Under the pieces are notes generated by a model, which saw only the letters and a list, made by a program, of their open reading frames with translations, was not told the DNA's origin and searched no databases. 20,233 bases of DNA from positions 1 to 20,233 of the IMG/VR virus record IMGVR_UViG_3300020189_000085. One strand, written 5' to 3'. Below are positions 1 to 4,429 of the stretch, one piece after another (within the stretch, counting starts at the first letter, position 1; each line of letters opens with the position of its first letter). This DNA is from a virus. Position numbers and translations under genes: made by a program.

Positions 1-771
1 ACGTCTAACACCACCAGCAAGTACTGCATCTGCTGAGTGCATAGAGATATCATATACATGAATAGGTTTCAATTCAGTGACGCCAGAGAGCACCAATCCT
101 TGAAGGAGGTGTTCAATCTTATCCAACGCTTTGCGCAATGGTTCGGGGCCTGGTGCCTTGAATCCACCAGAAATTTCTGCACCTTGCGGCCTAATTTTAG
201 AAAGGTCAAAATATACTTTACGGCCTTCGAATTCTGGATGAGTGCCACCACCAACAAAATAAGACGACATAAGAACAGACAAAGAGTCTGCCCAACCTTC
301 AATAGAATCCTCTACTACATATCCTTTTGCCTGCTTCTTTCTTTCTGTAATATTCGGTAGTTTTTCGACGTGGTGTTTTTGCACAGAAAATCCTGCGCCG
401 GCGCCGCACAAAAGAATATAAAACAATTCTCCAAAGAATGCCGCACGATCTGCGTAAGATGATGTGCAGTTATACATACGCATTTGATGTTTCAACAGTT
501 GGTCTCCACCAAACTGCAATGCTCTCTGAGCACCCAGTGCATACTGCAATTTATATGCGGCCTCAGCCTCGTCAATTAATAAGGAAAGGTTGTCAGTCAT
601 TTTATCTTTATAGTACTGACGGTGCATTTCCATAACTCTAGCAACCGATTCATCCCACGTTTCATATCTTTCATTGTCGTCATTCCATCTAGAATATGCC
701 TCATAAAATTTTGATTGTGACATAATGGAACGAGTATCCGTTTCCTTAATTGTATTGACTACTTTAAGCAT
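1..771 (-). CDS. nrdJ: Class II (adenosylcobalamin-dependent) ribonucleotide reductase, N-terminal part
   Basis: The gene runs off the left edge of the window, and 257 N-terminal residues are visible. The family reduces ribonucleotides to deoxyribonucleotides for phage DNA synthesis, using coenzyme B12 to make the radical. Motifs seen are HQMRMYNCTSSYADR around residues 95-109, with C102 in the place of the first redox cysteine of the Lactobacillus-type enzyme, then LLCGAGAGFSVQKHHVEKLP (about 121-140) and HSADAVLAGGVRR at the window edge. These match my recollection of monomeric B12-dependent reductases. The radical-site cysteine and the C-terminal redox cysteines lie outside the window. The ATG at 769-771 follows AGAGGAAAAAAT, a good ribosome binding site, 24 bases after the primase stop, so it is probably co-transcribed with primase. 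The class II assignment rests on motif memory. NrdA-type is unlikely because the QKHH and MYNC context differs. Confidence 0.85.
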   Translation of the reverse strand, partial: MLKVVNTIKETDTRSIMSQSKFYEAYSRWNDDNERYETWDESVARVMEMHRQYYKDKMTDNLSLLIDEAEAAYKLQYALGAQRALQFGGDQLLKHQMRMYNCTSSYADRAAFFGELFYILLCGAGAGFSVQKHHVEKLPNITERKKQAKGYVVEDSIEGWADSLSVLMSSYFVGGGTHPEFEGRKVYFDLSKIRPQGAEISGGFKAPGPEPLRKALDKIEHLLQGLVLSGVTELKPIHVYDISMHSADAVLAGGVRR

Positions 772-795: not shown

Positions 796-1800
796 TTAAC
801 ACTTTTTCCAACTAGCAAATTCTAGTTTGGCTTGAAGACCTGCGAAGGTATTTTTACTTATAATCTGTTTCAGTTCAACACTACTGATTCCAGACAAAAT
901 TATATCGTTTATATCTTTTTCTTTAATTTTTTCTGGCCATATTACACAATGATATTTTGAATCTATAATGTGTTGCATTCTATCTACAATCTGTTTATTT
1001 CTTGGTTCATTGTCCATCACAAAAACAACATTTTCATACTCATCAAACAATGATATATCGATATCAGACCCCATCATAGCAACACAATTATCGATGAATA
1101 AAGAGTCAATCGGGCCCTCTACCACATATATTGTTTCGTCTTTATCAATTCTCTCGATTCCAAAAATTTTTGGTTTTTCTTCGTCTATTTTGATAGTAAT
1201 ATATCTCATATCACTATTACCCAATGCACGTCCTTGCAGTGCAATAACATTACACTCCTCGTCAAAACTAGGAATTACAATTCTTTCTTCTTTTATTAGT
1301 TTATCATACCCTTCGGTTAGTGAGTTTACCAACTTGTGAAAATCGTTAGTATAATAGATTAAATCTAGTCTGGGTATTTTTCTATTCTCGCAATATACTC
1401 TTGCGGAATGGTTTACTGGCAAGTCGGATATTTTAATTGCATGTGAAAAATCACATACTTTTTTCTTAAAAACAGGGGATTCAAACTTAAATTCTGGTTC
1501 TTTTAAGTTTTTTCTTTTTCCAGTTTGTCCGTCTTTCCATTTTTCAAACACATATTCTTTATACAAAACGGGGTCAACAATCTCCATAAATTTGCCCAAA
1601 GACATACTTGCCCCACAGTTGTGGCACATATAATTGAAATTATTTTTCCGTAGATAGATATATCCACGGGCCTTGAATGTTTTCTTTTGGGAATCTCCAC
1701 ACAATGGACATCTACAATTGAAAAGATGGTCTCTTTTCTTTGCAAATCTATCCAACTTGTGTGATAATCTTGAGATATAAATTTGGTCAATATGAATCAT
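796..1800 (-). CDS. 61: DNA primase, T4 gp61-like
   Basis: This primase makes RNA primers for lagging-strand DNA synthesis in the T4-type replisome, where it works with the gp41 helicase. The protein has 334 residues, close to T4 gp61 at about 342. An N-terminal zinc-binding domain has CPLCGD near residue 31 and CHNCG near residue 59 (CxxC...CxxC). The TOPRIM catalytic core has YVVEGPIDSLF with the conserved Glu, and later VFVMDNEPRNKQ with the Asp pair. The segments VIPSFDEECNVIALQGRAL and KIFGIERI follow the T4 gp61 order. I place the start at ATG 1798-1800. An in-frame TTG nine bases upstream (1807-1809) lies within the -10 box of the adjacent promoter, so it should not be transcribed. No Shine-Dalgarno sequence precedes the ATG, which fits a leaderless message. 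The gene is followed by ribonucleotide reductase. Confidence 0.93.
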   Translation of the reverse strand: MIHIDQIYISRLSHKLDRFAKKRDHLFNCRCPLCGDSQKKTFKARGYIYLRKNNFNYMCHNCGASMSLGKFMEIVDPVLYKEYVFEKWKDGQTGKRKNLKEPEFKFESPVFKKKVCDFSHAIKISDLPVNHSARVYCENRKIPRLDLIYYTNDFHKLVNSLTEGYDKLIKEERIVIPSFDEECNVIALQGRALGNSDMRYITIKIDEEKPKIFGIERIDKDETIYVVEGPIDSLFIDNCVAMMGSDIDISLFDEYENVVFVMDNEPRNKQIVDRMQHIIDSKYHCVIWPEKIKEKDINDIILSGISSVELKQIISKNTFAGLQAKLEFASWKKC

Positions 1801-1807
1801 AAAGACC

Positions 1808-1836
1808 AATATACATTAACAATACAGTTTTGTCAA
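1808..1836 (-). promoter_or_regulatory. Sigma-70 type promoter for primase (early), predicted leaderless
   Basis: Reading the minus strand, TTGACA (1836-1831) is followed by a spacer of exactly 17 bases (1830-1814) and TATATT (1813-1808). The -35 box is a perfect consensus and the -10 box differs at one position from TATAAT. The primase ATG begins at 1800, eight bases after the -10 box, so transcription should start at or within a base or two of the ATG. It is the best bacterial-type promoter I found and lies at the junction between the lysis genes and the replication genes. I infer that host RNA polymerase uses it early in infection. Confidence 0.72.
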
Positions 1837-1844
1837 TAGTTATT

Positions 1845-2132
1845 TTATTGAAATTGATCTCTCAAAGTTTCTCGCAATTCAGCTCTAGTTACAAAAAGTG
1901 CCATATCTTTTTGCATCTGATCTAATTCATTTTCTATCAAAACAAGTTTTTGTTCTTGTCTGTTTAAAGTATCTCTCAAAGAAATAGACTCTGAAAGAAC
2001 TTGTGCAAGGCCCACCTTAACGTCTACTAATCCAGTACCAACCCAAGATAAAAATCCGACAATGAGAATCATTCCCACAGTCTGAATTCTTGTTTCTAAA
2101 GCCTGTCCACTATCTCTTTTATCTTCGGACAT
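1845..2132 (-). CDS. Small membrane protein with coiled coil (holin candidate)
   Basis: The protein has 95 residues. A short charged N-terminus (MSEDKRDSGQALETR) is followed by one hydrophobic segment at about residues 18-36 (TVGMILIVGFLSWVGTGLV) and then a heptad-like, charged helix rich in L, E and Q to the C-terminus (about 45-92). No signal peptidase site is obvious, so an N-in, single-pass inner membrane protein is likely. It lies 20 bases downstream of the outer spanin gene and has a good ribosome binding site (AAGGAATAGG). Its place at the end of the lysis cassette makes a holin, antiholin or lysis-timing role possible. That is inference from position and topology only; I do not recognise a named family. 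Confidence 0.75.
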   Translation of the reverse strand: MSEDKRDSGQALETRIQTVGMILIVGFLSWVGTGLVDVKVGLAQVLSESISLRDTLNRQEQKLVLIENELDQMQKDMALFVTRAELRETLRDQFQ

Positions 2133-3913: not shown

Positions 3914-4429
3914 CTATGAAATTACAATTTCTATACTTGCATCTGTTGTACTACCACCGCCGCCAGCGGAACTTACGCCTTCACCAACAATACCAGAACT
4001 GATAAATGGAGCATAAGGTGTTGCTGTCTGTATTGTCAATAATGACATTGTTAGCGATCCGGTGAAGGATGGTGTTTCTGTCATAGTATTTATAATCAGA
4101 AGATCTCCTGCCGGATAAAATCCAGTATACAATACTGCTGTGGAAGTCTGTAATTGATATTGTGTCAATTGTCCTGTGTGTTCAAAAACTCCATTAGAAT
4201 CTACAGTATAATCTGCGTAGAATGCTGGGTCACTATCCGTAAATCCAGTATACGGTGATGCTGTGGAAGTCTGTAATTGATATTGTGTCAATTGTCCTGT
4301 GTGTTCAAAAACTCCATTAGAATCTGTTTCTGAAGTTTCTGAATACATTTCGATATCACCATCCGTAAACCCTGTCAAGATTTGCAGATCGTAATCTGTG
4401 GGCCAAACTCCTGCTGGTAAAGTAGGCAT
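3914..4429 (-). CDS. Repeat-containing virion-like protein
   Basis: The 171-residue, acidic, Thr/Ser/Gly-rich protein is built from degenerate tandem repeats. Units begin TGFTD and end with FEHTGQLTQYQLQTSTA. Two copies of the block DSNGVFEHTGQLTQYQLQTS are identical, about 41 residues apart, and a third, diverged copy (SFTGSLTMSLLTIQTATPY) follows. The C-terminus is a flexible Gly/Ser stretch (SSAGGGGSTTDASIEIVIS). Repeats of this kind, rich in beta-strand formers, are usual in fibre-associated or capsid decoration proteins. The start follows AAGGAATAAAATAA. It sits 12 bases downstream of the 518-residue virion-like gene. No known enzyme motif is seen, and a structural role is inferred from context and composition. 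Confidence 0.72.
   Translation of the reverse strand: MPTLPAGVWPTDYDLQILTGFTDGDIEMYSETSETDSNGVFEHTGQLTQYQLQTSTASPYTGFTDSDPAFYADYTVDSNGVFEHTGQLTQYQLQTSTAVLYTGFYPAGDLLIINTMTETPSFTGSLTMSLLTIQTATPYAPFISSGIVGEGVSSAGGGGSTTDASIEIVIS
4136..4202. repeat. 67-bp perfect direct repeat, copy 1
   Basis: This stretch is identical in all 67 bases to 4259-4325, and the two copies start 123 bases apart. Both copies lie in the same frame of the repeat-containing gene and encode the same residues. Perfect identity, including silent positions, points to a recent duplication or ongoing gene conversion. Confidence 0.95.
4259..4325. repeat. 67-bp perfect direct repeat, copy 2
   Basis: This is the second copy of the repeat at 4136-4202. 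Recombination between the two would remove or add exactly 41 codons without shifting the frame, so the length of the encoded protein could vary between relatives. Confidence 0.95.

What the first reader, a model, noticed from the sequence alone, without database searches (positions are those of the whole stretch)
1798..1836. Strong sigma-70 promoter that should make a leaderless primase transcript
TTGACA, a 17-base spacer and TATATT are followed by only seven bases before the primase ATG. No Shine-Dalgarno sequence is present, unlike nearly all other genes in the window, and the in-frame TTG upstream falls within the -10 box. The site marks a border between late lysis genes and replication genes. 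A leaderless early message for a replication protein would be an unusual way to start translation early in infection.
Basis: partly seen in the sequence, partly recalled or inferred. Interest (0 to 1): 0.6.

Follow-up and report, generated by a model that had tools for sequence, protein, structure and literature searches.

The report
Leaderless early promoter of phage primase
A marine T4-like phage appears to start the message for its DNA primase exactly at the first codon, with no ribosome-binding leader; the promoter is conserved across relatives, and the leaderless form has arisen repeatedly, including in cultured phages of Pelagibacter and Methylophilales where it can be tested.

Summary
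On the minus strand, TTGACA (1836-1831), 17 bases, TATATT (1813-1808) and GGTCTTT precede the primase ATG (1800-1798). It is the strongest sigma-70-like site in the window. Lysis genes lie upstream, replication genes downstream. The promoter is conserved: 202 of 239 distinct primase upstream regions carry a strong sigma-70 site, against 1% of shuffles and 15 of 200 genes in phage Mosig. The gap from -10 to start codon is bimodal: 5-13 nt in 125, none at 14-19, 20-45 nt in 77. The short class leaves no room for a normal leader. The window's sister lineage (67% identity) has a 23-nt gap and a good Shine-Dalgarno site; four contigs of the window's own phage share its exact site. Short gaps arose repeatedly and occur in cultured phages of Pelagibacter and Methylophilales. 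A second gene of the same phage (phrog_624) has its own leaderless-type promoter, and its homologues show the same two classes. Best explanation: host RNA polymerase starts at or within a base of the AUG, giving a leaderless primase mRNA. No transcript ends were available, so this is strong inference, not proof. A new variant of a known kind.

The parts
1831..1836 (-). -35 element TTGACA
   Evidence: Sequence; strong sigma-70 site, mostly TTGACA/TTGACT with 17-nt spacing, in 202 of 239 distinct primase upstream regions
1808..1813 (-). -10 element TATATT
   Evidence: Sequence; same survey
1801..1807 (-). Discriminator GGTCTTT; predicted transcription start at the A of ATG (1800) or one base before
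   Evidence: 7-nt gap between -10 and ATG; inference from usual sigma-70 start positions; no 5'-end data
796..1800 (-). T4 gp61-type DNA primase, 334 aa plus stop, start codon ATG 1800-1798
   Evidence: phrog_451 E=3.6e-80 and phrog_47 DNA primase E=2.6e-75; M1 and D5 invariant in relatives
1845..2132 (-). Upstream small gene of the lysis region; its stop codon ends 44 nt before the primase ATG
   Evidence: ORF list; no family match
1..771 (-). 5' part of the ribonucleotide reductase gene downstream of the primase, with a Shine-Dalgarno site
   Evidence: L197 8221-10446 complete gene, B12-dependent RNR insertion domain

Best explanation
The site is a genuine host-sigma-70 (early-type) promoter whose -10 box sits one discriminator length before the primase start codon. 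Host RNA polymerase begins the transcript at or within about one base of the AUG, so the primase message that opens the replication gene cluster is leaderless. It would be translated by recognition of the 5'-terminal AUG rather than by a Shine-Dalgarno site. Shown here: the sequence, its conservation, the start codon, the two-class distribution of gaps and the repeated change between classes. Inferred: the exact transcript start, early timing, and translation of the leaderless message.
For: Promoter far above shuffles in 202 of 239 distinct homologous upstream regions, against 15 of 200 genes in phage Mosig. Gap from -10 to start: 5-13 nt in 125, none at 14-19, 20-45 in 77; after clustering at 85% identity 66 short, 52 long, still none at 14-19. 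The short class lacks SD (0 of 41 with gap 9 or less at -4 kcal/mol or better). At least 10 changes between short and long on the tree; the window is short beside a long-gap sister with a strong SD. Exact 41-base site in 4 contigs of the same phage from 4 metagenome datasets. Cultured phages Melnitz (gap 7), Mosig (10) and HTVC008M (11) share the arrangement. The same phage has a second site, TTGACA-17-TATATT-AATAGT-ATG, at a phrog_624 gene, whose homologues split into gap 9 or less without SD (0 of 18) and gap 20 or more with SD (20 of 26). The leaderless pattern is enriched over its reversed control in Melnitz (10 to 1) and Mosig (8 to 0), not in cyanophage Syn33 (0 to 5).
Against: No transcript 5' end has been mapped for this phage or, in the papers found, for its relatives. 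With a 7-nt gap the start could fall one or two bases either side of the A, and a start inside the AUG would destroy it. Gaps of 10-13 nt in the Mosig-like clade imply leaders of about 3-6 nt, so they are near-leaderless, not strictly leaderless. A few short-gap homologues start with GTG (3 of 65), a poor leaderless start in E. coli (general knowledge). Read-through from the lysis genes upstream could also supply primase mRNA.
Confidence: 0.82

Rival explanations
1. The promoter is real, but most primase is translated from longer transcripts that read through from the lysis genes, by termination-reinitiation after the upstream stop codon 44 nt away; the leaderless transcript is minor.
For: Upstream genes run in the same direction and no terminator-like hairpin lies in the 44-nt gap.
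Against: No SD in the gap, and 44 nt is long for coupling. It does not explain why a promoter is conserved immediately before the primase in 202 of 239 relatives, nor the empty zone at 14-19 nt.
Confidence: 0.1
2. The transcript starts at or near the promoter, but translation uses the in-frame TTG at 1809-1807 or another start.
For: The mechanical ORF call begins at that TTG.
Against: The TTG overlaps the -10 box, upstream of any start site this promoter could use, and no SD precedes it. M1 and D5 are invariant across relatives down to 34% identity. Codons 2-30 are under protein-level constraint against the sister (7 identical, 12 synonymous, 10 non-synonymous), so a start further downstream is unlikely too.
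Confidence: 0.03
3. The match to the promoter consensus is a chance feature of AT-rich DNA.
For: The window as a whole has no more promoter-like matches than shuffles.
Against: This is the single best site, one in 2840 shuffles scores as high, and it is conserved at the homologous place in most relatives.
Confidence: 0.03

Closest known systems
Leaderless mRNA of lambda cI (transcript from PRM begins at the AUG; general knowledge, the standard phage example)
   Same: Sigma-70 promoter placed so that the transcript begins at the start codon; no Shine-Dalgarno site
   Different: cI is a repressor of a temperate phage; here it is a replication gene of a lytic-type T4-like phage, and the arrangement recurs across a family and in several early genes
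'-10 region adjacent to ORF' expression mode of Deinococcus-Thermus (PMC12340547)
   Same: -10 box directly before the start codon giving leaderless mRNA
   Different: There the -10 motif can suffice without a -35; here a consensus TTGACA with 17-nt spacing is conserved, and the setting is phage early genes
Early sigma-70 promoters of T4-like marine phages (predicted by BPROM in Melnitz, PMC9004378, and in pelagimyophages, PMC7029224)
   Same: Host-sigma-70 type promoters before early gene clusters; Melnitz itself has the arrangement at its primase
   Different: The passages of those papers read here do not describe leaderless starts or two classes of leader length
Leadered primase promoters of the window's own relatives (L036, L012, L015 and others)
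   Same: Homologous gene, homologous promoter position and sequence
   Different: 23-40 nt between -10 and start, most with a Shine-Dalgarno-like site

Membership tests
Sigma-70 (host, early-type) promoter | -35 TTGACA-like and -10 TATAAT-like hexamers at 16-18 nt spacing, conserved | tested here: met
   TTGACA-17-TATATT; strong site in 202 of 239 relatives
Sigma-70 (host, early-type) promoter | Used by host RNA polymerase early in infection | not testable with these tools
   No expression data
Leaderless gene | -10 box about 5-9 nt before the start codon, leaving no leader | tested here: met
   Gap of 7 nt; ATG is the invariant M1
Leaderless gene | No Shine-Dalgarno site before the start codon | tested here: met
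   -2.2 kcal/mol with anti-SD; sister with leader -6.9
Leaderless gene | Transcript 5' end at the start codon | not testable with these tools
   Needs 5'-end mapping
T4 gp61-type primase | Zinc-finger cysteines and Toprim-type core, family profile match | tested here: met
   phrog_451 and phrog_47; C31, C34, C59, C62 invariant; weak Toprim_2 match just below its cut-off
T4 late promoter | TATAAATA box without a -35 element | tested here: not met
   Site is TATATT with TTGACA; the late box occurs elsewhere in the window

The most novel reading that the evidence does not exclude
In marine T4-like phages leaderlessness works as a gate: replication proteins are made only from transcripts that start at their own early promoter, not from late read-through mRNA in which the same AUG is internal and lacks an SD site. 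Leader lengths between the two workable designs are selected against, and phages switch between the designs repeatedly.
Probability: 0.25. Interest if true: 0.7.

Novelty: new variant of a known kind. Interest (0 to 1): 0.52.

Why it matters
Leaderless messages are usually treated as rare in Gram-negative hosts and their phages. Here a core replication gene of an abundant group of marine phages is predicted to use one. The leader-length distribution has a clean empty zone, and the change between leadered and leaderless states happened many times. This gives a natural comparative system for how ribosomes of Pelagibacter and related hosts start on leaderless mRNA. Cultured phage-host pairs (Melnitz, Mosig, HTVC008M) make it directly testable. 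It also warns that start-codon prediction relying on ribosome-binding sites can misplace such starts.

Tried and rejected
Chance match: rejected by conservation. TTG start: rejected. Late promoter: not the T4 late box. A terminator overlapping the promoter as the general rule: hairpin plus T-run found in 8 of 52 long-gap representatives (15%, shuffled 4%) and at background in short-gap ones, so it is a side feature of some leadered relatives only. RNA structure at the 5' end of the message: nothing unusual (z 0.91). The first 40 nt of the CDS fold less stably in short-gap than in long-gap sequences (-2.05 against -3.97 kcal/mol), but this was not corrected for base composition and I do not rely on it. 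Literature: searches with leaderless, phage, promoter and TSS terms gave no description of this arrangement in T4-like phages; subscription papers, including cyanophage transcriptomics, are mostly not held, so this is not proof of absence.

Full report
What is there. The window is part of a T4-like marine phage; G000 is a 20,233-base virus record, and the nearest annotated isolates are Kyanoviridae at about 47% primase identity. The genes discussed run on the minus strand. Reading along that strand, tail and adhesin-like genes are followed by two spanins (phrog_739 and phrog_812), a 95-aa gene ending at 1845, the site in question, and the primase. Contig L197 overlaps the window with 100% identity over 3267 bases and continues downstream: B12-type ribonucleotide reductase, RuvC-like resolvase, a phrog_624 protein, RNase H, a likely dihydrofolate reductase (judged by eye, not searched) and thymidylate synthase. 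So the border between lysis and replication genes is real. Seven TATAAATA late boxes in the window all lie on this strand upstream of the primase.

The site. TTGACA-17-TATATT-GGTCTTT-ATG is exact. It is the best promoter-like match in the window, though the window as a whole holds no more such matches than shuffled sequence does. Sigma-70 transcripts usually begin about seven bases after the -10 box (general knowledge). Here that is the last T of GGTCTTT or the A of the ATG; a purine start favours the A. The predicted message therefore begins with, or one base before, the AUG.

Is the start codon right? Relatives align from residue 1, and M1 and D5 are invariant in eleven diverse primases down to 34% identity. 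The alternative TTG lies partly inside the -10 box.

Conservation. I collected primase loci from IMG/VR with five protein scans, plus isolates from the phage collection, giving 239 distinct upstream regions. With a fixed weight matrix and a threshold at the 99th percentile of dinucleotide shuffles, 202 have a strong sigma-70 site. In the complete genome of Pelagibacter phage Mosig only 15 of 200 annotated genes do. The exact 41-base site of the window occurs in four contigs of the same phage from four metagenome datasets, so an assembly error is unlikely.

Two classes of leader. The gap between -10 and start codon is 5-13 nt in 125 sequences and 20-45 nt in 77, with none at 14-19. After clustering at 85% protein identity the split is 66 to 52, still with an empty zone. 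Under a uniform spread over 5-45 the empty zone would have probability about 8e-9; the sequences are related, so this is only a guide. Allowing six or seven bases for the discriminator, the empty zone corresponds to leaders of roughly 7-13 nt, presumably too long for a leaderless start and too short for a normal ribosome-binding site (inference). In the short class (gap 9 or less) no representative of 41 has an SD site at -4 kcal/mol or better; in the long class 11 of 52 do. Many cyanophage-like leadered homologues lack SD too, so for the primase the SD contrast is clear mainly among the window's own relatives.

Evolution. On a FastTree tree of 147 representatives the short/long state changes at least 10 times. 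The window is short; its sister L036 (67% identity, support 98) has a 23-nt gap and an SD of -6.9 kcal/mol; L039/L040 are a second short case in the same ten-member clade, whose other members with a promoter are long. A large clade that holds HTVC008M, Mosig (both Pelagibacter) and Melnitz (Methylophilales) is mostly short, while the clade with Synechococcus and Prochlorococcus phages is long wherever a promoter was found. The tree is approximate and some deep forks are weak.

Not only the primase. The same phage has TTGACA-17-TATATT-AATAGT-ATG before a phrog_624 gene, overlapping the stop codon of the RuvC-like gene. Eighty homologous loci of that gene, fetched without regard to promoters, show the same two classes: gap 9 or less with no SD (0 of 18), or gap 20 and more with SD (20 of 26; Mann-Whitney p about 1e-7). 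At the lower threshold used there, a few weak sites do fall between the classes. In one relative a gene that looks like the DNA polymerase has the pattern too (L381, judged by eye). Genome-wide, the leaderless pattern is enriched over its reversed control in Melnitz (10 to 1) and Mosig (8 to 0), weakly in HTVC008M (4 to 2) and T4 (4 to 1), and not in cyanophage Syn33 (0 to 5). Across 21 IMG/VR records it was 37 to 3, although some of those ATGs begin only short ORFs.

Mechanism. Most likely host RNA polymerase transcribes the replication cluster from this promoter and the first gene is translated from a 5'-terminal AUG. What this buys the phage is open. One idea is that a leaderless start makes the protein only from its own promoter and not from late read-through mRNA, because there the AUG is internal and has no SD; this is untested. 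Plain genome economy is an alternative.

Known or new. Leaderless mRNA is an established kind (lambda cI; Deinococcus-Thermus, PMC12340547). Papers on Melnitz and pelagimyophages predict early promoters but, in the passages read, do not describe leaderless starts. I rate it a new variant of a known kind.

Noticed in passing
L021, L023, L024 upstream of primase: These leadered relatives read TATATTGGTCTAATGTACTAA: the predicted transcript would itself begin with AUG-UAC-UAA, a 5'-terminal two-codon ORF, before the SD and the real start. L015-type leaders contain ATGTAA.
   Followed up: no
L012, L052, L092, L167, L176 upstream of primase: A terminator-like hairpin overlaps the -10 box of the primase promoter, so the upstream operon may end inside the early promoter; reminiscent of promoter/stem-loop cassettes of T4-type phages (from memory).
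   Followed up: partly
L197 6870-7424 (-): phrog_624 gene of the window's own phage with a second leaderless-type promoter overlapping the stop codon of the upstream RuvC-like gene.
   Followed up: yes
window 4118-4202 and 4241-4325: An 85-base stretch is repeated within the gene 3914-4429 (cross-match at 95% identity).
   Followed up: no
L202 (Syn33) 2001-2157 and L208 (S-PRM1) 1498-1747: Annotated gp61 starts lie about 156 and 250 nt downstream of where homology begins; both may use a TTG start that was missed.
   Followed up: no
Melnitz MZ577098 (W02), many sites: Many early promoter-like sites share a longer spacer motif of the form TTGACWTTTGTT..AAACATGTATA, suggesting a phage-specific promoter family or a regulator site.
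   Followed up: no
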